A stretch of DNA of 64,000 bases from Klenkia sp. PcliD-1-E (GTDB lineage Bacteria > Actinomycetota > Actinomycetes > Mycobacteriales > Geodermatophilaceae), in contig NZ_JAMXRZ010000004.1 of the NCBI RefSeq assembly GCF_024124375.1, positions 24,230 through 88,229 of the forward strand, written 5' to 3'. This document shows, one piece after another, positions 35,773 to 63,515 of this stretch; within the stretch, counting starts at the first letter, position 1; each line of letters starts with the position of its first letter. The translations under genes were made by a program, and so were the position numbers. The notes below the pieces were generated by a model that searched no databases, was not told the DNA's origin, and worked only from the letters and a program-made list of their open reading frames with translations.

Positions 35773-35795
35773 GCGCGGAGGTCAGACCGCCGCGC
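35773..35795. terminator. Hairpin between convergent genes
   Basis: A stem of ten positions with one mismatch around the loop CAG (GCGCGGAGGT / ACCGCCGCGC) lies 26 bases after the relaxase stop. It overlaps the stop of the minus-strand gene at 35782. It could end transcription from both sides. Confidence 0.45.
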
Positions 35796-36261
35796 CACTA
35801 ACGGTGCTGGCGTACCGGCTCCGGGCCGGCCAATCCTGGTGCCGTCCAGACCTGCACGTGGTCTCCCCCAGGCGATCCAACATCCGATCGCTGAAGGTCG
35901 GGAAGGCGTACCGGTTCCACTCCTCGGTCGGTTGAGGCGACGCAGAGGCCTCAGCCCGCCACCGCAGGACGGCCAGCACCGGGAGCTCGCGGGCGATGTG
36001 GGGGTGGTCCCTCCAGCACGACGGCACCAACTGCGCCGGCCGCCAAGCGAACTCGTGGTTGATCCACAGCACTACGTCCTCGCACCACGCCCAGATCTCC
36101 GCTGCGAGCTCCGCCGTGCAGGACGCCGGCTCCCAAGGCCGCTCCATCTCAGCGACCGCCGAGGCCGGGAACGCCTTCCCCTCCCGGCCCTCCATCCCCT
36201 GCAGCAGGTCCAGCGCAGCGAGGACGCCGAGGGGTGGTGGCGGGAAGGGCAGCACCACCAT
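35782..36261 (-). CDS. Small DUF4913-like conjugation-locus protein
   Basis: 159 residues; ATG 36261 shares one base with the stop of the coupling-protein gene (TGATG). The core EIWAWCEDVVLWINHEFAWR, VPSCWRDHPHI and ELPVLAVLRWRAE, with EEWNRYAFPTF near the end, fits small Trp-rich proteins encoded beside T4SS coupling proteins in actinomycete plasmids and ICEs (DUF4913-like). No enzyme motif is seen. A role in coupling-protein or relaxosome binding is inference. Confidence 0.55.
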   Translation of the reverse strand: MVVLPFPPPPLGVLAALDLLQGMEGREGKAFPASAVAEMERPWEPASCTAELAAEIWAWCEDVVLWINHEFAWRPAQLVPSCWRDHPHIARELPVLAVLRWRAEASASPQPTEEWNRYAFPTFSDRMLDRLGETTCRSGRHQDWPARSRYASTVSGAAV

Positions 36262-37745
36262 CAGCTGGTCGTGGGTGGATCGAGGGGGGTCATCCAGTGC
36301 GCCCGGGAGTACGCGAGCGCCGCAGCCGTCCGTCCGCCGCCGTCCGCTTCCTGACGCCTGGCGCGGTCGACCTGCTGCCGGGCCGCAGCCAGCTCCTCGG
36401 CGAGCCGCCGTCCGTCCGCGCCGTCCAGGCAGCGCTCCAGACGCGCGATGATCGGAGCGGTGGTTCCTGCGATCACGACCGCGTGGCGCTCGGGCACGGT
36501 GCGGAAGTCCCCCGGCCGGAGCACACGGACGTCCTCGCCCGACCGCGACGACCCCACTCCCCCGGGCCCGTCGGTGATCGTCCTCCGGCTGACCCGCACG
36601 TCGTCGAGCAGCTCTGACAGCTCCCGGTAGAAGGTCACGTCCTTGCCGCCGCCGAAGACGATCAGGTTGTTCGTCAGGCCGAACAGTGACCGGGCCTCGT
36701 CCTCGCCGTAGGCGACCACCATCTGCTTCCACGTCTGGGTGGCGTAGATGAAGGAGAGGCCGAGGGCGCGCTCGTTGGCCATCCGTACGCGCAGGGTCGG
36801 CAGCGGTGCCGTCGAGGGCAGCTCGTCCAGGCAGGCGAGGAAGGACGGCGTGATGCGGCCGTGCGGGGACCTGGTCGCGAGCTCCAGCGCTGTGTCGAGG
36901 ACGTGCTCGGCGACGGCCGTCATGAGTGGCGCTGCGGAGGCGTACGGGTCTTCTCGTCCGAGGAGGTAAATCGTGCCGTCCCGTCGGACCAGGTCGGCGA
37001 GGTCGGTCGCGGGTCGGGCCGGCCCCGGGACGCAGCGTCGACGCACGTCCGGCTGGAAGAACAGAGCCATGGCTTGCTGCACCGTCGTGACCGTGTTGCC
37101 GACCGTGTCGGGGCTGCCCCGCAGTGCCCCGAGCAGCAGCCCGTCCCAGAACCGGGCGGCTTGCGGGTGCTGCTGCAGGATCTCGGCGGGCTGCTCAGCC
37201 GCGACCGGGTTCGCTACCCACTCCAGCACGTGGTCGAGGGTGCGGCCGGTGAGTGCGGCCGCGTGCAGGAAGCCCTGCAGCACCTTGGCCGTCTCCGCTG
37301 CGTAGAAGCGCGCAGCTGAGTCTTGCCTGCCGCCGGACACGGCACCGCTGACCGTGCCGGCGGAGAAGGCCTTTGCGCGTCGCTCGGCCGTGCGCGGGTC
37401 GACGCACCCTGCGACCGGGTCCCACACCAGTTCCGGGACACCTGGCGCCGACCCGAACGGGTCCAGGACGGCGACCGGCCGACCGGCCCCACCGGGCACC
37501 GCAGGTCGTTGCCGCCGAGCCATGGTGAGCAGCAGGTCGTCGACCTTCGTCAGCGTGGCCAGGGCCCCACCCCGGTGGGCGAGCATGGCCGGAGCGAGGA
37601 GGTCCAGCGTCTTGCCGGAGCCCTGCTCACCGAAGACGCCGGCGGTCCGGTCGAACCGGCACCACAGTTCCACCCCGGACGGGACGGTGGATCGTCCGAT
37701 GCGCCATCCGACGTCCTGCGGGTCGCAGGTCGGGCGGTGGAGCAT
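36261..37745 (-). CDS. T4SS coupling protein, ATPase part (VirD4/TraD-like)
   Basis: 494 residues from ATG 37745 (TGATG coupling). It begins almost at the ATPase domain: DVGWRIGRST, then Walker A GEQGSGKT at residues 39-46, Walker B FLACLDELPS, GLSFIYATQTWKQM and a TraM-recognition-like C-terminus. It lacks the N-terminal membrane helices and the GWATR linker normally found in the same chain. Those are encoded 1.7 kb upstream by the 39447-39908 gene. It would bring the relaxase-DNA complex to the channel. See the finding on the split protein. Confidence 0.8.
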   Translation of the reverse strand: MLHRPTCDPQDVGWRIGRSTVPSGVELWCRFDRTAGVFGEQGSGKTLDLLAPAMLAHRGGALATLTKVDDLLLTMARRQRPAVPGGAGRPVAVLDPFGSAPGVPELVWDPVAGCVDPRTAERRAKAFSAGTVSGAVSGGRQDSAARFYAAETAKVLQGFLHAAALTGRTLDHVLEWVANPVAAEQPAEILQQHPQAARFWDGLLLGALRGSPDTVGNTVTTVQQAMALFFQPDVRRRCVPGPARPATDLADLVRRDGTIYLLGREDPYASAAPLMTAVAEHVLDTALELATRSPHGRITPSFLACLDELPSTAPLPTLRVRMANERALGLSFIYATQTWKQMVVAYGEDEARSLFGLTNNLIVFGGGKDVTFYRELSELLDDVRVSRRTITDGPGGVGSSRSGEDVRVLRPGDFRTVPERHAVVIAGTTAPIIARLERCLDGADGRRLAEELAAARQQVDRARRQEADGGGRTAAALAYSRAHWMTPLDPPTTS

Positions 37746-39022
37746 CAGCGAGACCTCGTCGGTCCGGCTTGCCGGGCCCTGCCGAGCAGCACCTGGCGGG
37801 CCGCCTCTCGGCTGGCCGCGTCGAGGGCGCCGGCCGCGGCCGGCCTCGTGAGCATCTCCTGGTTGGCCGCGAATGCGCGGCGAGGGAAACCCGGCGGGTG
37901 GGTGTCGTCCACCCGCACCGCGACCGACAGGGACAGCAGGCGCGCGTTGTGCAGCGCTCCGACGACGGGTTGGAGATCCGCGGCGTTCGCCCGCACCATG
38001 CCGCCGGGCTGGTAGCCCCGGAGGTAGGCGGCCGCCCGCTCCTCTCGAGGGGGGAGGTCGCGGGCGAAGGCGACCAGGCTGCCGTGGTCGGCCCAGGAGC
38101 GGACGGTGCGGTAGAGCAGCTGGACGGCGAGCGTGGGCATGTGCTGGGCAGCTGCCGCCACTGCCTCTCGTGCAGCCGGCCGGGCAAGCAGCTGCTCCGG
38201 CGGCACGGAGGTGAGAGCCCGGTGGACAGCACCCGCTGCGAGAACCGACGGTGGTGCGTCCGGATGCGGTCGCCTGCTTCCGTCGTCGTAGGGCCGAAGG
38301 ACGTCCTGGACGGCTCGCCACGCGGGCGCGGCCAGATGGCCGGAGCCGCGGGTGGAGGAGGTGTCCAGTCGCTGCGCGAGCGATGTGATCGTCTCGGCCG
38401 ACACGCAGTACGCCAAGACCTCGGCGACGGTGGGCAGCGGAGCGGTGGCCCCCGTCGCCTGGAGGATCACGGCGACGGCGTCCGGCACCTCGGCGACCGA
38501 GGTGCCGACCAAGGCGTTCGCCGGACTCGGCAGGGGCCGGTCGAGGAGTGCGGCGTCGCTGACGGCGGGGGGCTCCAGCGCCGCGTCCTGCTGGACGACG
38601 AGCGACCACCGCAGGGTCTGGTGCACCCACTGCGACGCTTCCCCCTCCGGTCCGACGAGGACGGCGGCCAGCGAGTGGGCCGCATCGGCCAGACCGACCG
38701 CGACCGCCCACCGGGAGGACACCGTGCTGTGCGCGTGCAGCACGGCCAGGCTGTCGGCAGCCGCGGCGGACAGCTCGGCCATCCGGCCTTCCCCGACGGG
38801 TGCGTGCCGCGCCAGCTCGCTGCACCCGGTGGCCAGCGCAGCGACGTCACGCTCCCTGCGGTGCCCGGACTCCGACGCCAGGCCGTCCTGCCTCAGGTGC
38901 TCCAGGGCTCGGCCCACGTGGCCGAGCCCGGTGGCTGCGTCGGCCTGCGCCGAGGGCGTGCGACCAGACCGCTGGGCGACGTCCACCAGATGGTCGAGCA
39001 GCTGGCCGAGTGAGGTGGCCAT
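37745..39022 (-). CDS. Conserved hypothetical helical protein in T4SS operon
   Basis: 425 residues, not recognised. The sequence is Ala/Leu-rich and probably all-helical, without signal peptide or membrane segment. LYRTVRSWADHGSLVAFARD and DLPPREERAAAYLRGYQPGG are the most ordered stretches. It lies between the two halves of the apparent split coupling protein and is coupled to both neighbours by TGATG. It may be a cytoplasmic adaptor of the coupling protein; this is inference from position. Confidence 0.6.
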   Translation of the reverse strand: MATSLGQLLDHLVDVAQRSGRTPSAQADAATGLGHVGRALEHLRQDGLASESGHRRERDVAALATGCSELARHAPVGEGRMAELSAAAADSLAVLHAHSTVSSRWAVAVGLADAAHSLAAVLVGPEGEASQWVHQTLRWSLVVQQDAALEPPAVSDAALLDRPLPSPANALVGTSVAEVPDAVAVILQATGATAPLPTVAEVLAYCVSAETITSLAQRLDTSSTRGSGHLAAPAWRAVQDVLRPYDDGSRRPHPDAPPSVLAAGAVHRALTSVPPEQLLARPAAREAVAAAAQHMPTLAVQLLYRTVRSWADHGSLVAFARDLPPREERAAAYLRGYQPGGMVRANAADLQPVVGALHNARLLSLSVAVRVDDTHPPGFPRRAFAANQEMLTRPAAAGALDAASREAARQVLLGRARQAGPTRSR

Positions 39023-39323
39023 CAGCGCACCGCGATCAAGGCTCGGCGGGCATGCCGGGCAGCCTCGACCACCGCTGGCTTGGCGAAGTCCTCGAAGTCC
39101 AACTCTCCCAGGGCGCGCAGCGCCCGGGTGATGAGCACGTCAGGTCCGGGGTGGTCCGGTACCGGCGGTACGGGGCCGGTAGGCACGCCGAGCGCATGCA
39201 GGCCGTCAGGCTGTGCAGAGCCATGGATCGACTCGCCAGCCGGTGTCGGGCCGCGGTGGCGAGCAGTGCGGCGGCGAGGACGACGGCCTCGGGTGCCGTG
39301 TGGGCGCGGTCCTTCTGGTGCAT
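39022..39323 (-). pseudogene. Small operon gene with an apparent frameshift
   Basis: ATG 39323 has the strong ribosome site GAGGAGAA and starts MHQKDRAHTAPEAVVLAAAL with plausible helical protein to about SMALHSLTA. The same frame then becomes Ser/Arg/Trp/Pro-rich, typical of an out-of-frame reading. The next frame from about 39205 reads GLHALGVPTG, then DVLITRALRALGELDFEDFA and KPAVVEAARHARRALIAVR, ending at 39022 in TGATG with the next gene. A joined product would be about 100 residues. Mutation, sequencing error or programmed shift cannot be separated here. Confidence 0.5.
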
Positions 39324-39446: not shown

Positions 39447-39908
39447 TCAACGCCTGGTGAGATCCGGCCTGATGACGGGTCGGGCGGCGCGAAGTGCACC
39501 AGTGCCGAGTGCGCGTCGGGCCTGCGCTCGGGTCGCGAACCCGGTCTTCTGACCACCGAGCCCGAGCCGGTGGCGTAGCAACCGGGCACCCAGCAGGCAC
39601 CCGACGCAGAGCAGGAGTTCGCTCAGGGCGACCAGCAGGTACGTCGGAACGGGCCCGGCGACCCGTGCGTGCAGCCCTGGCGGGTACCCAGCAGCTGGCG
39701 CGCCTCCGACCAGCCCGACGACGGCCGAGCTGATGTCCCGGGCCGTGGCCGGCCACACCCAGCCGCCGCCCCACAGGGCGGCCGCGACCCCCACCCCGAC
39801 GAGGGCCGCGCACACGACGCCCCCGACCACAGTTGTGACGACCACGAAGGCCACCTCCCAGCCGCGGCCGACGGGTTCCGGGTCCCGGCGTCGAACGGGA
39901 GCGCTCAC
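39447..39908 (-). CDS. T4SS coupling protein, N-terminal membrane part
   Basis: 153 residues from GTG 39908 (GTGA overlap). Two membrane helices: WEVAFVVVTTVVGGVVCAAL with a following hydrophobic run, and TYLLVALSELLLCVGCLLGA. A cytoplasmic tail reads GQKTGFATRAQARRALGTGA then RPVIRPDL. The tail matches the segment that, in intact actinobacterial VirD4/TraD proteins, follows the second helix and precedes the ATPase domain. The protein stops there, so this looks like the detached membrane anchor of the 36261-37745 ATPase. By itself it would be called a hypothetical membrane protein. Confidence 0.6.
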   Translation of the reverse strand: MSAPVRRRDPEPVGRGWEVAFVVVTTVVGGVVCAALVGVGVAAALWGGGWVWPATARDISSAVVGLVGGAPAAGYPPGLHARVAGPVPTYLLVALSELLLCVGCLLGARLLRHRLGLGGQKTGFATRAQARRALGTGALRAARPVIRPDLTRR

Positions 39909-40999
39909 CCGATGTGCCGAACGGCGACGACCTGACCGGACCACCGACTGGCCTCGGTCACGATGACGGGGACGCCGACCATCGGGGCGTGCACGAGGTA
40001 GAGGTGCCGGCCGTCCTCCTGGTCGACGTAGCCCGCCACCATCCCGACGTGCCCGGGCCGGAGGGCGGTCCCGCCCGAGCCCGGGATCATGACAAGGTCG
40101 CCGGCCACGGCCTCGGTCAGGTTTGTGGCGCTCGGGATCCCGTGCCCGGTCTGGGCTGCCGCGTTGTGCGGCAGAGCGACCCCGGCCGCTGCCCACGCAG
40201 CCATCGTGAGGCCTGAGCAGTCGAAGGAGTCGGGCCCTGACGCGGCCCAGACGTAGGGCTTGCCGAGCTGCGCCAGGGCGTACTGGACGGCCGACACACC
40301 TTGCGGTGTTCCGTTGATCACGAGACCCGGCGGGATGGTCGTCGTCCCGGTGGTGTTGCCCCCCATCGGGCCGACGAACTCCCCCGCCGGCACCGCCCCG
40401 CCAGCACCGGGGCAGACCGGTGCGGGCGACCCGCCCGCCTGCCCTGTCGAGCTGCTGACCGTGGGCCAGATCTGACCGACGACCTGCTCGGCGAGACCCA
40501 GGTGGAGGGCGTACCGGTCGGGATAGGCGGAGATCTGCACCGCCTGAGCGGCGTCACCCATGGGCATCGACTCCCACGCCGGCAACTCGACGAGCCGGTC
40601 CAGGAATGCCTCCGTGGACCTCACCGGGTCGATCGCCACGGCTTCGGTGTAGATCGACACCCGCTGCTGGAACAGGCCCTCCGAGTCGTGGTCGGTCTGG
40701 ACAGCCGAGTTGATCAACCTGGATTCGGTGTAGGCGGTCGCCACCGCGATGAGGGCCGCGCGTACTGGAAGCTGCCGATCAGCGACGACCGACACGATCG
40801 TCCAGGCGTGCCCCATCTGGTCGGCGTCCAGCTCGACGCCGTCCATGGACTGACCCGTGCCGGCCCCCGCGCACAGACCCACCGACGGCTCGGCCGAGGA
40901 GGCGCCGCCACCGGTGAGCACCAGCACGAGCGCCGCCACGAGGGACAGCACCGGCACGACGGCGACGGCCACGGAGGTCCCGACCCGGTGGGAGCTCAC
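39905..40999 (-). CDS. Bifunctional lytic transglycosylase-like / NlpC-P60 peptidoglycan hydrolase
   Basis: 364 residues from GTG 40999. An N-terminal membrane/signal segment (VAVAVVPVLSLVAALVLVLT) is followed by a goose-lysozyme-like domain: AALIAVATAYTESRLINSAV with Glu92, SEGLFQQRVS and AAQAVQISAYPDRYA. A C-terminal NlpC/P60 domain at about 243-364 has KPYVWAASGPDSFDCSGL with Cys261 and a His in RPGHVGMVAGY. It should open the cell wall so the secretion channel can be built, the job of VirB1 in Gram-negatives. It is coupled to the VirB4 ATPase upstream. Confidence 0.85.
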   Translation of the reverse strand: MSSHRVGTSVAVAVVPVLSLVAALVLVLTGGGASSAEPSVGLCAGAGTGQSMDGVELDADQMGHAWTIVSVVADRQLPVRAALIAVATAYTESRLINSAVQTDHDSEGLFQQRVSIYTEAVAIDPVRSTEAFLDRLVELPAWESMPMGDAAQAVQISAYPDRYALHLGLAEQVVGQIWPTVSSSTGQAGGSPAPVCPGAGGAVPAGEFVGPMGGNTTGTTTIPPGLVINGTPQGVSAVQYALAQLGKPYVWAASGPDSFDCSGLTMAAWAAAGVALPHNAAAQTGHGIPSATNLTEAVAGDLVMIPGSGGTALRPGHVGMVAGYVDQEDGRHLYLVHAPMVGVPVIVTEASRWSGQVVAVRHIG

Positions 41000-42510
41000 G
41001 TCGGCACCGCCTCGGCCGGGCGGGACAGCGCCTCGTTCGTGTTGGTCAGCGCCATGTCCACCGAGGTGCGGACCGTCTGGACCTTCGCGACGTGGCTGCC
41101 GACCATCCACAGGGCCCGTCCGCGGGCGGCCGCCGCCCAGTCGGTCACGATCCGCTCCGCCATCGGGCTCAGCCCCAGCAGGCCGGACAGCTCGTCGCCG
41201 ATCTGCTCGTCCTGACCGAGCAGGACCTTCGTGGCGCAGAGATGGAGGAGGTCGCGGGCGATGGCGACTGCCTGGCTGTCGGCGTCGCCGACGGTCAGCA
41301 TGTCCGACGGCTTGTGCGCCACCACTACCTGGATGCAGCCCTCGTTCCGAGACAGACGGAGGTCGGCGTCCAGGGACTTGACCGCGTCGGGGCCCAGCCG
41401 CATCTGCTTCCAGCACTCGTCTCGGACGACGATGCGCAGGTCGCCTGGTTCGGCGAGCTGGGTCATCGCGCGGCCCCAGGAGTTCAGGCAGGTGAGCGCA
41501 ACCCCGATGGCGTGGTCCCCCAGGGGCTCGAGTCTCGACAGGGACAGCGACTGGATGGGGGCGCGCCAGTCGACCTGCACGGTGGTGGGTGCGTCGAACA
41601 GGCCGGCAAGGTGCCCGGTGACCAGGGCGCCCAGTGCGTCACGCACCGACCGGGTGTCGTCCAGGAAGTGCTGCCGGTCGGCGTAGCGACAGGACTCCAC
41701 CAGTTCGTCGTCCGGCGCTCGCAGGGCGTGCCAGAGGTCGGGAATGGTAATCTCCCGCATGCGGTCGGCTCCGCTGCTGTAGCCGGTGACCTCGCGGAGG
41801 ACCTGGCCCACCGCGGTCTCCGCGGTGGGCCCGAACGGCACCTGCTGGGAGCCCACCAGACCGCGGATGAGGAGCAGCCACCGGGCAAAGACCATGGCAG
41901 CACGCCGCTGGGCCTCCGCCCTCGGCAACCCGCTCCAGTCGTTGCCGAGAGGGCCGAAGTCCAGCGGGTTGATCCGGGCCGGGAGTCCGTGCCCGACCGC
42001 GTGCGGTTGCACACCGAGCGCGCCGCACAAGGGCGCGTACTCGTCCTTCACGTCACCGAGGACCAGCGTTCGGTAGCCGTAGGCCATCTGGCGCAGGGCA
42101 AACATCTTGATCGTCCCGGACTTCCCGCGGCCCGGCGCACCGAAGACGATCATGTTGGGATTGGTCACCCCAGCCACTCCGTTGAGGGTCCAACCGATCG
42201 GGTCGGCCGCGAACGCCCCGCCCGACAGGTGGTCGATGCCGAGCAGCGCTCCGGACGCCGACAACCCGTTCCCGGCGATCAACGGCCAAACCCCGCCGAC
42301 CTGCTCGGTGGTCATCCGGTACACCGAGAGCGGGGCGGGAACCGCCGCCCACCCCGTCGCTGGGCCGAATCGGCCTCGACGTCCGACCGGGTTCCCGAAC
42401 GGGTCCCTGTCGACCTGGTGCGGGGTGGCCGGCACCGCCCGAGGCAGCTGGTGGTCGAAGTCCGCCATCAACCTCGCCAGACCCCGGCCCGGCACCCTCC
42501 TGCTGTTCAC
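40996..42510 (-). CDS. VirB4-like T4SS ATPase
   Basis: 504 residues from GTG 42510, which overlaps the previous stop (GTGA); ATG 42468 is an alternative. Walker A GAPGRGKSGTIKMF lies near residue 130, GDVKDEYAPL follows, Walker B is LRIVVRDECWKQM, and VVVAHKPSDML is the later motif. It has the ATPase half of VirB4/TraU but not the 300-residue N-terminal half of Gram-negative VirB4; that part may be in the coupled SCO6880-like protein. It energises channel assembly and transfer at the membrane. Confidence 0.85.
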   Translation of the reverse strand: MNSRRVPGRGLARLMADFDHQLPRAVPATPHQVDRDPFGNPVGRRGRFGPATGWAAVPAPLSVYRMTTEQVGGVWPLIAGNGLSASGALLGIDHLSGGAFAADPIGWTLNGVAGVTNPNMIVFGAPGRGKSGTIKMFALRQMAYGYRTLVLGDVKDEYAPLCGALGVQPHAVGHGLPARINPLDFGPLGNDWSGLPRAEAQRRAAMVFARWLLLIRGLVGSQQVPFGPTAETAVGQVLREVTGYSSGADRMREITIPDLWHALRAPDDELVESCRYADRQHFLDDTRSVRDALGALVTGHLAGLFDAPTTVQVDWRAPIQSLSLSRLEPLGDHAIGVALTCLNSWGRAMTQLAEPGDLRIVVRDECWKQMRLGPDAVKSLDADLRLSRNEGCIQVVVAHKPSDMLTVGDADSQAVAIARDLLHLCATKVLLGQDEQIGDELSGLLGLSPMAERIVTDWAAAARGRALWMVGSHVAKVQTVRTSVDMALTNTNEALSRPAEAVPT

Positions 42511-49492: not shown

Positions 49493-49509
49493 CGCTTCGC
49501 GCACCGCCC

Positions 49510-50391: not shown

Positions 50392-50396
50392 CTCGG

Positions 50397-56243: not shown

Positions 56244-56465
56244 CTACTGGAAGAGGGCCGTCTTGCTGGCCACGAACGCCACGGCGGCTGTGGTGACTGC
56301 AGCGCCCAAGGCGATCGCCAGGATGACCATGAAGGCCTTCTCCGAGGAGTCCGAGCCGCGGTCGTCCTCGACGTCCTCGGCTCGGAGCCAGGAGACGACG
56401 GCGAGGACGCTGGTCTGGACGGCATCGGTCACCCGGCGGGCGATCGCGGTGGTGGAAGGGATCAT
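56244..56465 (-). CDS. Flp-type major pilin candidate
   Basis: 73 residues from ATG 56465. One hydrophobic helix, SEKAFMVILAIALGAAVTTA then AVAFVASKTALFQ, ends the protein after a charged leader-like segment with EDVEDDRGSDSSEKA. The size, the place between TadC and TadE genes and the single C-terminal helix suit actinobacterial Flp pilins, though the leader is longer than in Aggregatibacter Flp. The ALFQ end is common in such actinobacterial proteins. Confidence 0.7.
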   Translation of the reverse strand: MIPSTTAIARRVTDAVQTSVLAVVSWLRAEDVEDDRGSDSSEKAFMVILAIALGAAVTTAAVAFVASKTALFQ

Positions 56466-56491
56466 CGTGCTTCTCCTGGGTGCGGTCGGGC

Positions 56492-57388
56492 TCAGGTCGC
56501 GGTGGTGAACATGCGGATGAGGAAGGGAACGAGGACGAACAAGGTCAGGCCGGTGACCAGCAGGGCCAACGGTCTGGCCATCCGTTCGCTGACCTCGTTG
56601 GCCTGGGTGCGGGCGTCGGCCAGCTCGGCATGCCTCAGGGTTCGCGCCGTGGCGAGGAGCGTGTTGTAGACCGACGCACCGTCCGAGGCCACCGCAGCGA
56701 TGTCGGCGAGGCCGCGGAGTTCCTCCACGCCCAGTTCGTCCCCCAGTTCGCGGAGGTCCGTCCAGGGCTTGCGCCCGGCGAGGGCGGAGCGACGCACGGC
56801 CTGGTGCATCCGCCGGAACGGGACGCTGCCCGAGACGCGCGCTGCTTCCTCCAGCGCCTGCTCGACCGATCCCCGCGCGCGCCGTTCCCCGGCGACGAGG
56901 GTCAAGTAGCACTCCAGGTTGCTCCGGAACTCCTGCCGCGCCGCGCGGGCGTTCTCGCGGACGTCGGCCGTGGGCAGGAACCAGCCGACAGCCGCCGTCC
57001 CGACGCCTGCTGCCACGGGGATGGCCGCACCGAACGGGACGCCGGCAACGGCCATGAGCACCCCGATGAACGACGGCGCGAGCAGGCCAAGCAGCGCGAG
57101 CCTGAGCTTCCGTGCGGCCAGGTCGGCGCGGGTCATGCCGAGGATGGCCAGGTCGGTGCCCGGCACACCCAGCCGCTGCTCGGCCGCGAGCAGGACGCGG
57201 TGGGGCACGAGCCGGGAACGGGTGGCCGACGGACTGGTCGGCACGGGTCCGCGTACGGAAGGCTGCACCGACAGCCGGTCCAGCGCAGCTCCGAGCGCTG
57301 GTGGAGCGGGCCGCAGTGCGCGGACCGCCAGGAGGGAGCCGGACGCAATCAGGCTGCCGGCGATCGCGGCGAGCTGGAGACCGGTCAC
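56492..57388 (-). CDS. TadC-like pilus platform protein
   Basis: 298 residues from GTG 57388 (GTGA overlap). T2SSF-type domain with helices LRLALLGLLAPSFIGVLMAV, AAIPVAAGVGTAAVGWFLPT and PLALLVTGLTLFVLVPFLIR, and ERRARGSVEQALEEAARVSG between them. It forms the inner-membrane platform with TadB. Confidence 0.85.
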   Translation of the reverse strand: MTGLQLAAIAGSLIASGSLLAVRALRPAPPALGAALDRLSVQPSVRGPVPTSPSATRSRLVPHRVLLAAEQRLGVPGTDLAILGMTRADLAARKLRLALLGLLAPSFIGVLMAVAGVPFGAAIPVAAGVGTAAVGWFLPTADVRENARAARQEFRSNLECYLTLVAGERRARGSVEQALEEAARVSGSVPFRRMHQAVRRSALAGRKPWTDLRELGDELGVEELRGLADIAAVASDGASVYNTLLATARTLRHAELADARTQANEVSERMARPLALLVTGLTLFVLVPFLIRMFTTAT

Positions 57389-58245
57389 GAGACGCCCCCG
57401 CCGGGCGGATCCGCGAGCACCCTGGGCCATGCCGGAGGCGCCGACAGCCCTCTCATCCACCGGAGGGCCGTCCCGAAGACGGCGGCGACGAGGAGTAGTG
57501 CGACCTGCCCCAGCGGGCTCGAGTAACCGGAGAGGAACTCGCGCGCGAACAGCAGCATCGCGGCGATCACGACACCAGTCGTGACGACGATGGTGCGCAT
57601 GTTGGACCGTGGCTTGGCCCGTTCGGCCTCCACCTCGCGGACCATGCGGGATCGTTCGTCGAGGTCGGCCGCCAGGGACGTGAGCACCTCCGCGAGGCCG
57701 GGACCACCGTTGCGCTCGCGGAGGATGAGCACCATGGCGATCTTGTCGGCCGCGGGATCGCCGATGTCGTCGGCGAAGCGGCGCAGAGCCGTCTCCACTC
57801 CCTGCGGGCCCATGCGATTGACGAGGTCAGCGACAGCAGGCCGGATGACGGCCGGTGCCGAGTCGGCCGACCGTCGCAGCGCCTCGCGGGTGGAGCCTGC
57901 GGCTCCCGAACTGATGAGGTCGGCGAGGCGACGCGTCCAGTCGGCCAGGGCGTCAGAGGTGTCGATCAGTCGACGAGACGCTCTGCCTCCGCCGATCACG
58001 CTGGGCACGAAGACGACAGCGGCAGCGGCGGCGATGGCCGCCACGGGCCACCCGGCGAGCGCGAGGACCAGGACGCCGACCAACAGGCCGGCCGCATGCG
58101 TCCTCGTCGGGCGGAACCCCCTTCGGCGTCCGGCGGAGCGATCGGACTCCAGCAGCGTCTCTCCACGGGCCGCGAACACGGCCGCAACTCCCCCAGCTGC
58201 CACGAGGAGGCCGCCGACGCCCATCAGCAGTGCTGCCGCGGTCAC
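57385..58245 (-). CDS. TadB-like pilus platform protein
   Basis: 286 residues from GTG 58245. Helices at the N-terminus (AALLMGVGGLLVAAGGVAAV), centre (GLLVGVLVLALAGWPVAAIA) and C-terminus (TIVVTTGVVIAAMLLFAREF). The T2SSF core reads ALADWTRRLADLISSGAAGS and ERNGGPGLAEVLTSLAADLD. It is the partner of TadC. Confidence 0.85.
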   Translation of the reverse strand: MTAAALLMGVGGLLVAAGGVAAVFAARGETLLESDRSAGRRRGFRPTRTHAAGLLVGVLVLALAGWPVAAIAAAAAVVFVPSVIGGGRASRRLIDTSDALADWTRRLADLISSGAAGSTREALRRSADSAPAVIRPAVADLVNRMGPQGVETALRRFADDIGDPAADKIAMVLILRERNGGPGLAEVLTSLAADLDERSRMVREVEAERAKPRSNMRTIVVTTGVVIAAMLLFAREFLSGYSSPLGQVALLLVAAVFGTALRWMRGLSAPPAWPRVLADPPGGGVS

Positions 58246-59660
58246 GGCGTCGCCCCGGCAGACGTGGAGGCTCGCCAGTCCGAGGCATCGGGATGGAGCC
58301 AGTCGAGATCGAAACCGACCGCGCTCAACCGCTCCCGGAGGGAGTCGCCCAGCAGCCCGGCTCCCGTCGCACGTGCTCGCCGGTCACCGACTCGGGGCGC
58401 GAAGACGGCGGTCAGGTCCGGGCGTCCCGAGTCACCGATGGCACCCAGCTCGTACACACCGGAGACGTACCGGTTGTAGAACCGATCGCGTTCGACGTGG
58501 ACGACCAGCCCGAGGGCGGCCAGGGAGCGCAGGACCAGTTCTGACGACGGGGCCGGGTGCGCCTTGAGGGCGTTGATGAGCACCTTGTCGAAGATCCCGC
58601 CCGCCGAGGGCGAGTGGATCGTGCACATCACCGAGGCGATGCCGCTGGTGGCTGCCTCCAGCAGCGATGTCACGTAGGCGCCCCGGACCTCGCCGACCAG
58701 GACCCACGTCGGCGACGCTCGCAGCGCCAGGTGCAGGGCATCGCCCATGTCGAAGGCCCCGCGTCCTTCGGCGTTCGGCAGGCGCGACTCGAACGGCCGG
58801 CAGACAGCGTGACGAGAGACGTAGCGCTTCTCGGCGGCGTCCCATCGTGGGATGTGCAGCCCGAGCTCGCGTTCGTCCTCGACGGTGACGACGACGTTGT
58901 TCCACGGGATGGTGTTGCCGAGCGCGCGCATCAGCGTCGTCTTCCCGACACCCGGGGCCCCGGACACGAGGGGCGACACACCCGCCTCGATCGCTGCCCG
59001 CAGGAACGCTCGCAGGGGCCCGTCGACCATGCCCATCCGGTGCAGGTCGTCCAGGCTCGGATCGCTGAAGCGGTGCACCCGGATGACCCCGGCCGGTCGG
59101 GGCACGACATCCATGGCGGCCTGCAGGCGAGCACCGAGCTCGGTCACGCCCTGCAGCCGGACGTTCAGCACAGGGCTCGCAGACGAGAACTCCCGACTCG
59201 TCTGGCCGCCGTCAGAACGAGAGCCCATCGCACGCAGCAGTTGTTCCAGTTCCTCGTCGCTGGTCGCGATAGGCGGACCCGGCACCAGGGCGCCGTCGAC
59301 CAGGCGCAGCATGGTGGGCTCGGAGCCCTCGAAGTGGATGTCCTCGACATCGGGGCGGGAGAGCAGCGGCGCGAGTCGACCCAGACCGTCGAGCTCGGCC
59401 AGCACCGCGTCGACGATGGAGTCCTCAAGCAACCCGTCCGGCGCGGACCGGCCGCTGTTCGCCTCGTGCAGGAGCCACTGCTCGTACTCGTCGTTGACCA
59501 GCTTGCGGGTGAGTTCGCGGCGCGGGCCAGGCGCGTAGTTGCGGTCCTCGGCGCTGAGGCGGGTCGACACCCGCTGACGGAGCTCGGCGACCACCCGGTA
59601 GTCACTCTCGGAGAGCTCCGCCATCCCGGTCCCGTGCTCGACGTCCAACTGGGCGGTCAT
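58242..59660 (-). CDS. tadA: TadA/CpaF-type pilus ATPase
   Basis: 472 residues from ATG 59660 (ATGA overlap). GspE/CpaF family: Walker A SGAPGVGKTTLMRALG near residue 230, Asp-box-like VTVEDERELGL, Walker B WVLVGEVRGAYV, and His box CTIHSPSAGGIF. It should power pilus extension, and retraction if it occurs. It clusters with TadB, TadC and TadZ. Confidence 0.9.
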   Translation of the reverse strand: MTAQLDVEHGTGMAELSESDYRVVAELRQRVSTRLSAEDRNYAPGPRRELTRKLVNDEYEQWLLHEANSGRSAPDGLLEDSIVDAVLAELDGLGRLAPLLSRPDVEDIHFEGSEPTMLRLVDGALVPGPPIATSDEELEQLLRAMGSRSDGGQTSREFSSASPVLNVRLQGVTELGARLQAAMDVVPRPAGVIRVHRFSDPSLDDLHRMGMVDGPLRAFLRAAIEAGVSPLVSGAPGVGKTTLMRALGNTIPWNNVVVTVEDERELGLHIPRWDAAEKRYVSRHAVCRPFESRLPNAEGRGAFDMGDALHLALRASPTWVLVGEVRGAYVTSLLEAATSGIASVMCTIHSPSAGGIFDKVLINALKAHPAPSSELVLRSLAALGLVVHVERDRFYNRYVSGVYELGAIGDSGRPDLTAVFAPRVGDRRARATGAGLLGDSLRERLSAVGFDLDWLHPDASDWRASTSAGATP

Positions 59661-60430
59661 GCACTCACCGATGTCCGCGACCGGTCTGCCGCGGCCAGCC
59701 GACGCGCCATTTCACCTGCAGACCGCACGAGGGGCGACCGCCGCATACCCCGTCCACTCGCAGCGACGCCGTCCGAGAAGACCGATGCCGAGACCCCGTC
59801 CGCGGGCATCCGACCGGCGAGGGGAATGCCGAGCGTGCCGGCCACCTCGTCGGCTGAGTAGGGGCCCGCACCCACCACTAGTGCGGAGACCGTGCCCAGG
59901 TCGCCCAGCTCGGTGCGGAGGCGGCGAAGCGCGTCATGCGCTGCATGGACTGACCGCACGCTCGGCCGGACGACGAGCAGCACGAGGTCTGCTGCCCGGA
60001 CGACCGGCCAGCACCCACGGTCCCCCACGAGCCGACCGGTGTCGACGAGGACGTCTCGACCCAGCGAGCGCGGGGCAGCGGCCAGAGCTGTCGAGAGCCG
60101 CTCCCACGTAGCCGCGGTGAACGAGGCGCCCTGGGCGGCTGTCCCGAACCCGGGCAGCAACCCGAGCATCGGGTGCTCGGGTATCTGCACGGCATGGCTG
60201 AGCAGAGCGGACGCCGCGGCAGCCGGCCCGGTCTCGTGCCGGACGGCCGCCGACCAGGACAGCAGCCCGGTCTCCGCACCGACCCGGCCGGCCATCAGCC
60301 CGGGCGCGACATCGCCGCCGGCGAGGTCGCAGTCAGCCAATAGCAGGGCACGGGGCCAGGTCGTGGCCAGCGCGCAGGCCGTCGTCGTCACCCCCGGCGC
60401 GGCCTTGCCGGAAGTCAGCACGGTAAGCAT
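59657..60430 (-). CDS. TadZ/CpaE-like ParA-family protein
   Basis: 257 residues. MLTVLTSGKAAPGVTTTACA begins the protein with a ParA-like P-loop whose GK[ST] is replaced by GVTT, a deviation known in TadZ/CpaE proteins. LLADCDLAGGDVAPGL and DVLVDTGRLVGDRGCWPVVR and LVLLVVRPSVRSVHAAHDAL are further family traits. It probably places the Tad machine at the membrane. Starts by TGATG overlap with the CpaB-like gene. Confidence 0.75.
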   Translation of the reverse strand: MLTVLTSGKAAPGVTTTACALATTWPRALLLADCDLAGGDVAPGLMAGRVGAETGLLSWSAAVRHETGPAAAASALLSHAVQIPEHPMLGLLPGFGTAAQGASFTAATWERLSTALAAAPRSLGRDVLVDTGRLVGDRGCWPVVRAADLVLLVVRPSVRSVHAAHDALRRLRTELGDLGTVSALVVGAGPYSADEVAGTLGIPLAGRMPADGVSASVFSDGVAASGRGMRRSPLVRSAGEMARRLAAADRSRTSVSA

Positions 60431-61131
60431 CAGCCGTTGCCGGGCAGCACGATGACGGCCAGGTTGCCGGTCGACGCCAGGGCCGCGACGGCTTCCCCGT
60501 CGTCCTCGGACACCTCGACATCCACAACGGTCACCTGGGTCGCCGGGTTGAGGGGTCCGACCTGCGCGACGGTCGCAGTCACGGTCGCGGCGAGGCCGGA
60601 CGCGGTCGCGTTCACGACGCCCGCGGTGCCCGGGGTGGCGACGACGAGGACCTGCTGACCCGGGGTGAGCCCACGGGCAGGGAACTGTCCGCCCTGAAGG
60701 GGCAGCGCGACCAGCACGCTCCCGTCGGGGATCCCGGACCCGGTCCCGAGCTGGGACATCGTGAGCAGCCCGCCCCGCGACAGCGGGACCTCGGCCACCA
60801 TGCCGACCACGCTGGACAGATCGGCCGCGGCGACCGGGCTGAGCGCGGGGTCGTCGGGGACGCTCGCGACGACGAAGTCCTCCGCAGTGAGGATGGCGCC
60901 GGCCTCGACGTCCCGCGCGATGGCCAGCACCTCGGTGCGGCTGGTGAGCATCTGGGCAGCGGTGAAGGCCAGGATCCCGCCGAGGAGGACGACGAGCACG
61001 GCCAGCGCGAGCGACTTCCTGCTGACCCGGCGCCGTGCCGCCGCGGTCAGCTGCACCGGGGCGGGAGCCGAGGCGCGGGGACCATCCGCGTCGTCCCCGG
61101 CGCGGATCGGCGCTCGCAACTGCGCGGTCAT
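60430..61131 (-). CDS. CpaB/RcpC-like SAF-domain protein
   Basis: 233 residues from ATG 61131 (ATGA overlap). One helix (LALAVLVVLLGGILAFTAAQ) is followed by an SAF domain: VLAIARDVEAGAILTAEDFV, SSVVGMVAEVPLSRGGLLTM, RGLTPGQQVLVVATPG. This is the periplasmic or cell-wall pilus component CpaB/RcpC, here without an outer-membrane secretin, as expected in an actinomycete. Confidence 0.8.
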   Translation of the reverse strand: MTAQLRAPIRAGDDADGPRASAPAPVQLTAAARRRVSRKSLALAVLVVLLGGILAFTAAQMLTSRTEVLAIARDVEAGAILTAEDFVVASVPDDPALSPVAAADLSSVVGMVAEVPLSRGGLLTMSQLGTGSGIPDGSVLVALPLQGGQFPARGLTPGQQVLVVATPGTAGVVNATASGLAATVTATVAQVGPLNPATQVTVVDVEVSEDDGEAVAALASTGNLAVIVLPGNG

Positions 61132-62081
61132 CGAGTGACCACCGTCTGCGCCTCGACGACGGCGAAAGCAGCGGTCGACGTGGTGGTCAACGGCGGGAGT
61201 GTGCCCGTGACCCCGGTCGAGGACCGCCACGAGACTGACCATCGGATGCCGTACACGGCGGACACCTTCCCGTCGGGCTGCTGGAGGGACGAGCTGTCGT
61301 AGCGGTAGTCACAGCCTGACGGCGACGGGCTCCACACCCCGGCCGAGGGCTGCCACGCGGTGCCGGGCCCGGTGCAGGACACGGTCGCGGAGCCGTCCCC
61401 GGGGGTGAAGGTGAGCGCCGTCGGGGTCACGGTGACCTCGGCCCACACGCCGCCGGCGTCGGCCCGCGCGGACGTCGGCCGGTAAGAATCGGCGTCGGTC
61501 CAGAACCAGGTGTGGGCGTTGACGACGGTGTAGGCGCGTCCGTCGCTGAGGGTCCCGGCCGGGTACCGACCGGCGGTCGGCGAGGGAAGGACGACGGTGT
61601 CGAGCGCCTGTCGCGCAAGGACGGCGGGGTCCACCGCCGCTGGTCCGGCAGGCGGAGTGGCCGACCAGAAGGTGTAGCCGTTGGTGCCCGGGAAGGAGAG
61701 CCCGTTGGTGAACGGCGTGCAGAAGTAGAGGGCTCCATCGGTACGACCGCCCCACATCGGGGAGTCGGATGGCGGAGGGTTGTCCAGGGGGCGGACGTAG
61801 CACTGCTTGGTCTGGGACCACCAGCCGCCGGCGTCGGAGCACGGGACGGTCGCACCCAGCCGGGTGTCGGTACAGGCTGCTGCCGGCGTCGTACCGCCTC
61901 CGCCGTCCGATCGCGGAGAGCTCGGGCTCTGCCCGTTCGAGCCGCCGGTCTCTGCGGTCACCACGCAGAACCCGTGGGCGGTGTACTGCTGGCACTCGGC
62001 CGGGGCCGCGGAGCCGACCGAGGCCGGCAGCACAGCGATCAGGGCCAGGGTGCTGGCGAGGATGAGTCTCAGCCGGGACAT
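61128..62081 (-). CDS. Secreted protein of the Tad locus
   Basis: 317 residues from ATG 62081; the frame is open further but this start begins a signal peptide (RLILASTLALIAVLPASVGS with cleavage near SAAPAE). The mature protein has several Cys (AECQQYTAHGFCVV, CTDTRLGATVPC, KQCYVRP, YFCTPF) and a beta-rich second half (AYTVVNAHTWFWTD, TALTFTPGDGSATVSCTGPG). Not recognised; overlaps the lipoprotein gene by 13 bases. May be a pilus-associated or adhesive surface protein. Confidence 0.65.
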   Translation of the reverse strand: MSRLRLILASTLALIAVLPASVGSAAPAECQQYTAHGFCVVTAETGGSNGQSPSSPRSDGGGGTTPAAACTDTRLGATVPCSDAGGWWSQTKQCYVRPLDNPPPSDSPMWGGRTDGALYFCTPFTNGLSFPGTNGYTFWSATPPAGPAAVDPAVLARQALDTVVLPSPTAGRYPAGTLSDGRAYTVVNAHTWFWTDADSYRPTSARADAGGVWAEVTVTPTALTFTPGDGSATVSCTGPGTAWQPSAGVWSPSPSGCDYRYDSSSLQQPDGKVSAVYGIRWSVSWRSSTGVTGTLPPLTTTSTAAFAVVEAQTVVTR

Positions 62082-62662
62082 GCCTGGGCCTGTGTGTTCG
62101 GGGCCGAGCTGACCCGCCAGGACGAGGAGTCCGGGTAGGCGGTGTTGACGATGGTCAGTTCGGAGACGAGGAACGGAGACTGCTGCCCCGGCGTCAGCGC
62201 AGCACCGGCCGAGGAAGTCGCCCCGACCTGGGTGACGTCGATGCACGCCGTGATCTTGACGAAGGGCAGGTCCCCCGCGGCCGCTACCTCGAGGTCGACT
62301 AACCCCGGGGTGGTGCTGACGACCTGCGATTGGCCGGTCTGGGTGTAGCCGCTGGCGCGGAAGCTCTGGATGGCGGCGGCCTCCGACGCGGCCTCCGGGT
62401 CCACCGCCACCTCGTACAGGGTGTCGATGGGCAGGGTCGGGTCGGTGTAGAGCTGGTCCACCGTCTGCCAGTAGGCCGTGACGAAGGCGGTGGCCTCCGC
62501 GACGGCCGACTTCTCGGGGTCAGTGGTGGTCGACGGAGCGGCCGTCGTCGGCGTCGAGGAAGTAGCGGGCTCCGCGGGGGTGTCCGACCCGGAGCAGGCT
62601 GCGAGGAGAACGGGCAAGGTCATCAGCGCGCAGCGAGCAGCCACGACGTGCGAGAGCGTCAT
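62069..62662 (-). CDS. Lipoprotein, first gene of the Tad operon
   Basis: 197 residues from ATG 62662, with a strong GGAGGAAGG ribosome site. Signal peptide and lipobox LPVLLAACSGSD near residue 25, a Thr/Ser/Ala-rich linker, then an NTF2-like domain: ATAFVTAYWQTVDQLYTDPT, AAIQSFRASGYTQTGQSQVV. It heads the minus-strand Tad series and probably sits on the outer face of the membrane. Longer starts would bury the signal peptide. Confidence 0.7.
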   Translation of the reverse strand: MTLSHVVAARCALMTLPVLLAACSGSDTPAEPATSSTPTTAAPSTTTDPEKSAVAEATAFVTAYWQTVDQLYTDPTLPIDTLYEVAVDPEAASEAAAIQSFRASGYTQTGQSQVVSTTPGLVDLEVAAAGDLPFVKITACIDVTQVGATSSAGAALTPGQQSPFLVSELTIVNTAYPDSSSWRVSSAPNTQAQACPG

Positions 62663-62741: not shown

Positions 62742-62759
62742 GTCACCCGGTCCGGTGAC
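62742..62759. promoter_or_regulatory. 18-bp inverted repeat upstream of the Tad operon
   Basis: GTCACC at 62742-62747 and GGTGAC at 62754-62759 form an 18-bp dyad (7 of 9 pairs overall), 80 bases before ATG 62662. It lies between the divergent lipoprotein and prepilin-peptidase genes and is a candidate operator for both. The element-encoded HTH proteins are possible binders. Confidence 0.35.
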
Positions 62760-62870
62760 ACGAACGACTGATTTCGAGCTTGCGTGGGTCACGAACCGTC
62801 ACCAGGCAGTACAACCTCAGTGACAGCCCCCTCACCAGCGCGATCAGCGCTCAGCACCAAGCGAGGACAC

Positions 62871-63515
62871 GTGGACACCCCTGCGGTCGCCGCTGTGGCC
62901 ATCGCCTCGGCCGCCGGCTCAGTGGCGGTCCCTTGGGTCACCGTCCGGGGGTTGCGACAGGTGCGATGGGGTGGCCCACTCCCCCGCCGGCTCCGGTCGG
63001 GCACCGCGCTGGTGGGCGCCGCGACAAGCGCCGCGGTCGCGGATCTCCTCTTCGCGCGCATCGAGTGGGCGTTGCTGCCGGCCTACGTCCTATGGACGTG
63101 CGCTCTGGTGGCGCTCGCGATGTGCGACGGGTTGACCCAGCGGATCCCGACGCCCCTGATCCGCCGATCGATCGTCGTCGTCTGCCTCGCGTTGATTGCG
63201 GGTGCGGGCAGCGCGGGGCACTGGACACTGCTGCTGGCCGCGGCCGCTTGGATCATCGCCTCGGCGGCCGCCTTGCTCCTCGCATGGCGCTTCGCTGGTG
63301 CTGGCTTCGGGGACGTTCGTCTCGCGGTCCTCGGGGGCGTCGGTCTGGGCTTCGCCACCCCCACCAGCCTGCTCATCGGCCTCGGCGCGTGGGCCGCCGT
63401 AACCGCCGGCCAAGCCGTGACCGCGAGCGCCCGAGATGGATCGCTGCGGACGAGGGTCGCCCTCGGACCGGGATTGGCGACGGCGTTCCTGGTGGCCGCC
63501 TGCATACCCACGTAG
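62871..63515 (+). CDS. A24 prepilin peptidase (TadV/CpaA-like)
   Basis: 214 residues from GTG 62871, chosen over 62784 for its GAGG site and membrane-first N-terminus. Several helices are evident. The two catalytic Asp motifs are present: DGLTQRIPTPLI after the third helix and GAGFGDVRLAVLGG later. It lacks the N-methylation domain, as do TadV/CpaA enzymes. It should cleave the Flp and TadE-like prepilins encoded divergently on the other strand. Confidence 0.85.
   Translation: MDTPAVAAVAIASAAGSVAVPWVTVRGLRQVRWGGPLPRRLRSGTALVGAATSAAVADLLFARIEWALLPAYVLWTCALVALAMCDGLTQRIPTPLIRRSIVVVCLALIAGAGSAGHWTLLLAAAAWIIASAAALLLAWRFAGAGFGDVRLAVLGGVGLGFATPTSLLIGLGAWAAVTAGQAVTASARDGSLRTRVALGPGLATAFLVAACIPT

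What the first reader, a model, noticed from the sequence alone, without database searches (positions are those of the whole stretch)
35782..63515. One element carrying a T4SS and a complete Tad/Flp pilus: a possible Tad-assisted conjugation system
Seen directly: on the same strand and in the same coupled style lie VirD4-, VirB4-, SCO6880-, VirB6- and NlpC/P60-type genes (36-48 kb) and TadA, TadB, TadC, TadZ, CpaB, Flp, TadE-like and A24 peptidase genes (51.8-63.5 kb), with a relaxase at one flank. Known: Gram-positive T4SS lack a conjugative pilus, and Tad pili mediate adhesion. Inference: here the Tad pilus may bring mating cells together. I am not aware of an actinomycete element described this way.
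Basis: partly seen in the sequence, partly recalled or inferred. Interest (0 to 1): 0.85.

Follow-up and report, generated by a model that had tools for sequence, protein, structure and literature searches.

The report
Mobile DNA with a grappling pilus
A stretch of DNA in an actinomycete, likely part of a mobile element, carries side by side a DNA-transfer machine and the genes for a thin Tad pilus; the same pair sits together in dozens of related genomes and plasmids, and the pilus would likely help the donor cell catch a partner before DNA is passed on.

Summary
Window 30,558-63,515 carries a MOBF relaxase, a SCO6880-type T4SS and a Tad/Flp pilus locus. In the host's family (Geodermatophilaceae, inferred from relatives) 32 of 35 SCO6880 T4SS loci have a TadA of one of two clades within 50 kb, against 0 of 39 listed TadA genes of other kinds. 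In two relatives the core lies between tRNA-Pro repeats, in ICEs of 92.7 and 136.0 kb; 23 of 23 core genes tested are in both, the window's cargo is not. The pairing recurs on pTC1, pNOCA01 and other plasmids. TadA is under purifying selection as strong as VirB4. Tad and T4SS trees disagree in part, so Tad cassettes are exchanged. Pairing is not universal: 6 of 44 listed SCO6880 places in 36 genomes of other families. Most likely role, inferred: mating-pair formation, as type IV pili do for R64 and PAPI-1. No transfer experiment exists here. The pairing is not wholly new: a Cutibacterium acnes plasmid with tad plus conjugation genes was published in 2017 (PMC5696575), the functional link left open.

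The parts
30558..35747 (+). MOBF (TrwC) relaxase fused to AAA helicase and DnaG-type primase domains
   Evidence: Pfam TrwC 1.6e-85, AAA_30, DNAG_N, Toprim_2; H.H motif at 299
35782..36261 (-). gp35.8, conserved small protein of the T4SS block
   Evidence: 36-77% identity in the ICEs and plasmids where found
36261..37745 (-). VirD4/TraG coupling ATPase
   Evidence: TraG-D_C 6.6e-20; Walker A
37745..39022 (-). gp37.7, conserved T4SS-block protein of unknown family; lies elsewhere in the block in type B elements
   Evidence: 29-71% identity in relatives' elements
39022..39186 (-). gp39.0, small conserved ORF (54 aa)
   Evidence: 51-87% identity in type A and some other elements
39447..39872 (-). 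gp39.4, small conserved predicted membrane protein
   Evidence: 30-55% identity in relatives, not counting a 35-residue hit on pNOCA01
39905..40999 (-). NlpC/P60 cell-wall hydrolase, VirB1-like role inferred
   Evidence: Pfam NLPC_P60 1.3e-12; DCSG motif
40996..42468 (-). VirB4-like ATPase
   Evidence: PDB VirB4-like 4ag5 1e-6; NCBIfam VirB4-type hits below cut-off
42507..43997 (-). SCO6880-family T4SS protein
   Evidence: NF042935 6.6e-121
43994..45328 (-). VirB6/TrbL channel protein
   Evidence: Pfam TrbL 3.2e-10
45321..46151 (-). gp45.3, one predicted N-terminal helix; VirB8/TcpC-like role only guessed
   Evidence: conserved; structure model too poor to test (pLDDT 48)
46438..47307 (-). ParA/MinD-like P-loop protein
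   Evidence: P-loop and weak CpaE/Ssd hits below cut-off
47304..48062 (-). gp47.3, HTH-type regulator candidate at the head of the T4SS block
   Evidence: weak HTH hits below cut-off; 31-86% identity where found; no hit in the type B regions
51841..54990 (-). LysM protein (BTAD-like C-terminus recalled), last gene of the Tad locus
   Evidence: Pfam LysM 2.4e-10; beside Tad on the plasmids opened
55391..55822 (-). TadE-like minor pilin 2
   Evidence: Pfam TadE 1.3e-5; GSESVE prepilin-type motif
55819..56232 (-). TadE-like minor pilin 1
   Evidence: Pfam TadE 5.8e-11; GSSSVE motif
56244..56465 (-). Flp-type major pilin candidate
   Evidence: GSDSSEKAFMVILAIAL-type motif in 7 of 7 type A regions with a hit; on pCHL and pA-N39 the Glu is Gln; no pilin Pfam hit
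56492..57460 (-). TadC platform protein
   Evidence: Pfam T2SSF 9.2e-8
57385..58245 (-). TadB platform protein
   Evidence: Pfam T2SSF 1.7e-7
58242..59660 (-). TadA/CpaF pilus ATPase
   Evidence: Pfam T2SSE 1.1e-17; PDB CpaF 3.8e-16; Walker A
59657..60430 (-). TadZ/CpaE-like protein
   Evidence: NCBIfam CpaE_hom_Actino 9.3e-9, below cut-off
60430..61131 (-). CpaB/RcpC (SAF domain)
   Evidence: Pfam SAF 2e-8
61128..62081 (-). secreted (by its N-terminus) beta-rich protein with conserved Cys, found in most Tad loci compared; candidate surface adhesin (guess)
   Evidence: 204 relatives; invariant Cys and Trp columns; model pLDDT 75.7, no solved fold matched at E <= 0.001
62069..62662 (-). putative lipoprotein, first gene of the Tad block
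   Evidence: found in 4 of the 5 type A elements with T4SS compared, not in G062:C2
62784..63515 (+). A24 prepilin peptidase (TadV-like)
   Evidence: Peptidase_A24 18.2 bits, below cut-off; GFGD motif; same place in type A elements

Best explanation
The block at 30.6-63.5 kb is the conserved core of a family of actinomycete elements, mobile by inference, that pairs a MOBF relaxase and a SCO6880-type T4SS with a Tad/Flp pilus locus, and the pilus likely serves as the element's mating-pair device, gripping recipients before the T4SS passes DNA. Steps shown by sequence: the three blocks are linked, ordered and under purifying selection; in two relatives they lie between tRNA direct repeats with an integrase, and elsewhere on plasmids; the core is shared while cargo is not. 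Steps inferred: the A24 peptidase trims Flp and TadE pilins; TadA with TadB/TadC polymerises, and may retract, a pilus; the pilus or the secreted protein at 61.1-62.1 kb binds a partner cell; NlpC/P60 opens peptidoglycan; VirD4, VirB4, SCO6880 and VirB6 export relaxase-bound single-stranded DNA. The window most likely lies wholly inside such an ICE, whose left end is near contig position 13.4 kb, outside the window.
For: Linkage: 32 of 35 SCO6880 places in the family have a type A or B TadA within 50 kb; 0 of 39 listed TadA genes of other kinds do. Block order kept in eight regions of the family: G001, G002, G005, G062:C2, G038 (type A), G053, G007, G033:C3 (type B; gp37.7 lies at the other side of gp35.8 there). 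Same pairing elsewhere: pTC1, pNOCA01 and pINDO-MA30-4, with Tad just before the T4SS; pCHL and pA-N39 with both on one plasmid; chromosomal G310, G327, G493 (two loci), G433, G126 and G112. ICE in relatives: exact 45-bp repeats in G005 (92.7 kb) and 44/45 in G002 (136.0 kb) with Tad inside; Pfam-confirmed integrase beside the Tad locus at tRNA-Pro in G005 and at tRNA-Thr in G053. Left-end homology of the window's contig to both ICEs at or just inside attL. Core against cargo: 23 of 23 core genes in the G002 and G005 ICEs and the G001 region, 20 of 23 in the G053 region; of 16 window cargo genes 4 have matches, all 25-45% identical. dN/dS TadA 0.10, VirB4 0.09-0.10. Exchange: type A Tad rides on two T4SS lineages, and G033:C3 has a type B Tad on a T4SS of the A-associated clade, so the slot is refilled rather than left empty. 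Precedent for the mechanism: PAPI-1 (PMC5297154, abstract) and R64 (PMC10516633, passages).
Against: No transfer or pilus experiment. One T4SS locus (G062:C3) lacks Tad within reach and two more are unresolved at contig ends. Tad without T4SS: G053b, and G052 whose genome has no SCO6880 hit. Of 10 SCO6880 places outside the family only one (in G112) has a listed TadA within 50 kb (cut list). Related SCO6880 plasmids of Pseudonocardia (2) and Dermacoccus (1) have no T2SSE gene at all, and 6 of 44 listed SCO6880 places in 36 genomes of other families are paired: this T4SS type does not need Tad as such. G418 has the T4SS lineage of G493a without Tad in the 40 kb held. The LysM protein matches 194 plasmid records, of which PLSDB types only 2 as conjugative; but the same typing calls pCHL, pA-N39, pINDO-MA30-4 and pYJNG non-mobilizable although they carry T4SS or MobF genes. 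Flp evolves less constrained than TadA (dN/dS 0.37). An adhesion benefit to the host would also favour a mobile pilus.
Confidence: 0.55

Rival explanations
1. The Tad pilus is an adhesion or biofilm trait that benefits the host cell and is simply carried by the element; it plays no part in conjugation.
For: Tad pili are known adhesins, and the C. acnes plasmid authors call the pili adhesive while leaving a conjugation link open (PMC5696575, abstract passage and Discussion). The LysM protein matches 194 plasmid records, 2 of them typed conjugative. Two family TadA places stand without T4SS.
Against: Tad behaves as core, not cargo: kept position between T4SS and integrase end, core shared while cargo differs, and linkage to one T4SS clade.
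Confidence: 0.27
2. The Tad parts feed the T4SS directly: TadA stands in for VirB11, and the pilins form part of the T4SS channel or a surface extension of it.
For: TadA matches VirB11/TrbB models and a PDB VirB11 chain besides CpaF; no other T2SSE-type gene lies on the window's contig.
Against: TadB, TadC, TadZ, CpaB, TadE, Flp candidate and A24 are kept, as a pilus needs; Pseudonocardia and Dermacoccus relatives of this T4SS have no T2SSE gene on the plasmid, so no VirB11 substitute seems needed.
Confidence: 0.06
3. The pilus takes up DNA or acts in recipients, as the Tad locus of Micrococcus luteus does in transformation.
For: A Tad role in M. luteus transformation is cited in the Discussion of PMC5696575.
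Against: Linkage is to an export system with relaxase. Competence genes were not searched for.
Confidence: 0.06
4. Linkage is hitchhiking: an old island in which neighbours were inherited together without working together.
For: Many elements are close kin, so the 35 places are not independent.
Against: Tad and T4SS trees disagree in part, with Tad types exchanged yet a Tad still present; dN/dS 0.10 for TadA; pairing recurs with T4SS only 24-31% identical in SCO6880 and VirB4 (G112, G126, G493a).
Confidence: 0.06

Closest known systems
Cutibacterium acnes linear plasmid with tad locus (p15.1.R1, p09-9, p11-79; Davidsson et al. 2017, PMC5696575)
   Same: Actinomycete element with a tad locus and, upstream of it, VirB4-type conjugation genes; a functional link named as unclear by the authors
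   Different: Conjugation genes reported there are FtsK/TraB-like, VirB4 and TcpC-like; the word relaxase occurs 0 times in its main text. Whether its T4SS is of the SCO6880 type was not tested (record not found)
pTC1 of Paenarthrobacter aurescens TC1 (CP000475) and pNOCA01 of Nocardioides sp. JS614 (NC_008697)
   Same: TadA-TadB-TadC-Flp-TadE-LysM just upstream, same strand, of VirB6-SCO6880-VirB4-TraG; MOBF and 'conjugative' by PLSDB
   Different: Circular plasmids; SCO6880 43% and TadA 30% identical to the window; pNOCA01's locus has an insertion after tadB; pTC1's TadE1-like protein lacks the Glu of the prepilin motif
R64/IncI thin pilus (type IVb)
   Same: A type IV pilus locus upstream of the tra operon, used to hold mating pairs (PMC10516633, PMC8213034, passages)
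   Different: Gram-negative, type IVb pilus with PilV shufflon adhesin; here Tad (type IVc, recalled) genes in a monoderm
PAPI-1 of Pseudomonas aeruginosa
   Same: An integrated island that encodes its own type IV pilus needed for its conjugation (PMC5297154, abstract)
   Different: Type IVb pilus that binds LPS; actinomycetes of this kind have none (recalled), so the receptor must differ
SCO6880-family T4SS plasmids of Pseudonocardia and Dermacoccus
   Same: Related T4SS with MOBF relaxase
   Different: No T2SSE/Tad gene found on the three whole records searched

Membership tests
Integrative and conjugative element (ICE) | relaxase and T4SS genes together | tested here: met
   30558-48062
Integrative and conjugative element (ICE) | integrase and flanking att repeats | tested here: inconclusive
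   Met in relatives G005 (integrase and exact repeats) and, for the repeats, G002; the window's contig ends at 64000, its left end shows only homology to ICE ends, and the tRNA-Pro 45-mer is absent from the whole contig (best 26/45)
Integrative and conjugative element (ICE) | self-transfer | not testable with these tools
   needs mating assay
Tad/Flp (type IVc) pilus | TadA/CpaF ATPase with TadB and TadC | tested here: met
Tad/Flp (type IVc) pilus | Flp prepilin with GxxxxE motif plus TadE/F | tested here: met
   In the window and type A relatives; Flp by motif and synteny only. In distant loci the Glu is Gln or another residue: Flp of pCHL and pA-N39, TadE1 of 8 of 19 loci with a hit
Tad/Flp (type IVc) pilus | A24 prepilin peptidase | tested here: inconclusive
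   18.2 bits, below Pfam cut-off, but motif and conserved place in type A; no hit in the type B regions held
Tad/Flp (type IVc) pilus | a pilus on the cell | not testable with these tools
   needs microscopy
SCO6880-type actinomycete T4SS | SCO6880 protein over cut-off, with VirB4, VirB6 and VirD4 | tested here: met
   SCO6880 404.5 bits, TrbL and TraG-D_C over cut-off; VirB4 by PDB similarity and weak models only
Type IVb conjugative pilus (R64/PAPI-1 kind) | PilV-type tip adhesin and type IVb pil genes | not tested
   No search with pil genes was made. Works-like claim only

The most novel reading that the evidence does not exclude
Actinomycete conjugative elements carry a swappable Tad pilus as a mating apparatus: a Gram-positive counterpart of the IncI/PAPI-1 mating pilus, in which different Tad types are exchanged between T4SS backbones and may set which recipients are caught.
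Probability: 0.43. Interest if true: 0.82.

Novelty: new variant of a known kind. Interest (0 to 1): 0.62.

Why it matters
T4SS of Gram-positive bacteria are held to lack a conjugative pilus (recalled), and how actinomycetes make mating contact for T4SS elements is open. A conserved pilus locus in the core of such elements gives a direct, testable candidate, with a soil plasmid (pTC1) on which genes could be removed.

Tried and rejected
One fixed chromosomal Tad locus beside a chance T4SS: rejected by sporadic distribution (SCO6880 in 36 of 116 relatives, 29 of them in the family), different tRNA neighbours and plasmid copies. Tad as cargo in the strict sense: not supported. Clean co-evolution of the two modules: rejected, trees disagree in part. 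Phage origin of the T4SS: no SCO6880 match in the phage collection. VirB8/TcpC identity of gp45.3: structure model too poor, left open. Known fold for the secreted protein at 61.1-62.1 kb: no match with E under 0.001. attL of the G053 element: not found in the 93 kb to its left that I held. Right end of the window's ICE: a search of the own genome with G005's integrase gave 6 matches of 28-37% identity on other contigs, not placed. Literature: ten searches led to one paper with tad plus conjugation genes in an actinomycete; most other papers listed were seen as listings only, and subscription journals are mostly not held, so wider priority cannot be excluded. Rows dropped: two G051 SCO6880 fragments; 5 of 21 ORFs left of the core (overlapping or small).
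Full report
What is there. The window is G000:C207:24230-88229, the right-hand end of an 88,229-base contig in a draft genome of 4.51 Mb in 262 contigs. NCBI puts Klenkia in Geodermatophilaceae. The relaxase reads on the + strand, the T4SS block (35.8-48.1 kb) and the Tad block (51.8-62.7 kb) on the minus strand, and the A24 peptidase on the + strand. Domain evidence is in the parts list.

Linkage in the family. SCO6880 was searched in 116 relatives (36 positive, 29 in the host family) and TadA in the same 116 (102 positive, place list cut). Of 35 SCO6880 places in the family (two further fragments in G051, on contigs of their own, dropped), 32 have a TadA of clade A or B within 50 kb, at 12-50 kb. 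The three others are G062:C3 (no Tad), G064 and G014 (contig ends). Of 35 A/B TadA places in the family, 32 have SCO6880 within 50 kb; the exceptions are G052:C145, G053:C1:1.54 Mb and G014 (split contigs). Of 39 listed TadA genes of other kinds in SCO6880-positive genomes (three of them in G051), 0 do. Clades A and B were defined by the TadA tree, in which type A also includes G112 from another family. Of the 10 SCO6880 places outside the family, one, in G112, has a listed TadA within 50 kb; the list of weak TadA hits was cut, so others are not excluded.

Order. With 27 window proteins as queries, the order relaxase, T4SS block, LysM, TadE, TadE, Flp, TadC, TadB, TadA, TadZ, CpaB, secreted protein is kept in G001, G002, G005, G062:C2 and G038 (type A, with A24). 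In G053, G007 and G033:C3 (type B) the block order is the same, but there is no hit for A24, Flp, gp47.3, gp39.0 or the lipoprotein, and gp37.7 lies on the other side of gp35.8. In the type B elements T4SS and Tad lie about 2 kb apart. In G112 the same Tad type (TadA 68%) precedes a T4SS whose SCO6880 is only 27% identical. In G001 the two blocks are 38 kb apart.

Mobility. In G005 a tyrosine integrase (Phage_integrase 104.9 bits) and tRNA-Pro(ggg) follow the A24 gene, and an exact 45-bp copy of the tRNA end lies at 48,451, so the ICE is 92.7 kb. In G002 a 44/45 copy gives 136.0 kb. In G053 an integrase (78 bits) and tRNA-Thr follow a type B Tad locus; its left end was not found. The window's contig has, at 13.38-14.11 kb, sequence like that at or just inside attL of both ICEs, so the whole window probably lies in an ICE whose right end is missing from the contig; the tRNA-Pro repeat itself is not in the contig (best 26 of 45), so the site would differ. 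Core genes tested: 23 of 23 in the G002 and G005 ICEs and the G001 region, 20 of 23 in the G053 region. Of 16 window genes left of the core (5 further ORFs left out), 4 have matches in these regions, at 25-45% identity, and 12 none.

Selection and exchange. Between the window and G002 or G001, dN/dS is 0.10 for TadA, 0.09-0.10 for VirB4, 0.08-0.10 for VirD4, 0.29-0.30 for the LysM protein, 0.37 for Flp and 0.32-0.33 for the relaxase; dS is near 1, so the values are rough. In the SCO6880 tree type A Tad occurs on the window's lineage and, separately, on a ~60% identical lineage that also carries type B; G033:C3 carries a type B TadA identical to that of G050 on a T4SS of the A-associated clade (98 SH-aLRT). 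Trees are quick searches without bootstrap.

Beyond the family. SCO6880_fam is in 158 of 394 genomes of the class. In 36 of these 158, picked for few contigs, 6 of the 44 SCO6880 places listed have a T2SSE gene within 50 kb, counted by eye: G310, G327, G433, G493 (two) and G126; the list of places was cut, so fainter ones are uncounted. All six are Tad loci with a LysM-protein match. Three unpaired ones that I fetched (G441, G354, G418) show T4SS hits and no Tad hits in 35-40 kb. Among 62 plasmid records with SCO6880, the six best (44-49% identity, H1-H6; two of them near-identical Pimelobacter plasmids) carry TadA and LysM matches; three of the next ten, taken as controls, have no T2SSE gene on the whole record; the other 53 were not checked. 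VirB4 ranks the same six plasmids first. On pINDO-MA30-4 many of these genes are annotated in pieces. In a tree of 32 SCO6880 proteins one supported clade holds 22 Tad rows and 1 without; Tad rows also appear in a second, distant clade, so pairing arose or was lost more than once (long branches there are unsafe). The LysM protein matches 194 plasmid records, many over its N-terminal quarter only and 2 typed conjugative; the four of these opened are Tad loci, for instance beside a MobF gene on pYJNG and on linear pREL1.

How it works. Shown: presence, linkage, order, selection, ICE ends in relatives. Inferred: pilus assembly from Flp and TadE after A24 cleavage, driven by TadA with TadB and TadC; contact with a recipient through the pilus or the secreted protein at 61.1-62.1 kb; wall opening by NlpC/P60; export by VirD4, VirB4, SCO6880 and VirB6. 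[quoted passage not shown] The use of type IV pili for mating contact is established in Gram-negatives: PAPI-1 (PMC5297154, abstract) and R64 (PMC10516633 and PMC8213034, passages).

What is known. Davidsson et al. 2017 (PMC5696575; passages and the whole Discussion seen) report a tad locus and conjugation genes on a C. acnes plasmid and say it is unclear whether the Flp pili are linked to the conjugation apparatus. So the pairing in one actinomycete plasmid is in print; a conserved core of ICEs and plasmids across several families, with exchangeable Tad types, I did not find in ten searches of an incomplete library (listed in Tried and rejected). I file it as a new variant of a known kind: pilus-assisted conjugation, here predicted with a Tad pilus in monoderms.

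Limits.

Noticed in passing
G000:C111 ~102.5-109 kb (L046, L160), G000:C185 74.5-81.4 kb (L047, L159), G000:C193:129 (L048): Three more MOBF relaxases 66-72% identical to the window's, with no T4SS or Tad hit in the 12-20 kb stretches held; two have an integrase relative near, and one a tRNA-Ser(tga): candidate mobilisable elements that could use the window's T4SS in trans.
   Followed up: partly
window 1-30000 and C207 13.4-24.2 kb: Cargo of acyl-CoA dehydrogenases, two carboxylase gene pairs, AMP-binding enzymes and an ABC transporter: looks like a catabolic island carried by the ICE.
   Followed up: partly
window 48218-49825: A 1.6-kb block with a small HTH gene (49223-49492) is inverted relative to Klenkia relatives.
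   Followed up: no
window 49957-51761: AT-richer insert (61.5% GC in 50-52 kb against about 72% around it) between T4SS and Tad with a matrixin-type M10 metallopeptidase and a small exported protein; not part of the shared core (one 27% match to the metallopeptidase in G002).
   Followed up: no
G000:C222 (L127-L128): A second Tad-LysM locus of another type on a 25.9-kb contig, with no hit to the T4SS proteins.
   Followed up: partly
G053:C1:1.536-1.548 Mb (L020-L021): A type A Tad locus with LysM and A24 but no T4SS in the 40 kb held, tRNA-Arg nearby: perhaps the relic end of an ICE.
   Followed up: no
pCHL, NZ_CP124682.1 (L010, L011): Nocardioides plasmid with Tad and SCO6880 T4SS also carries annotated sul1, aadA2, cmx and erm genes; described only.
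   Followed up: no
window 63546-63848: Short ORF at the contig end, just after the A24 gene; no family search was made.
   Followed up: no
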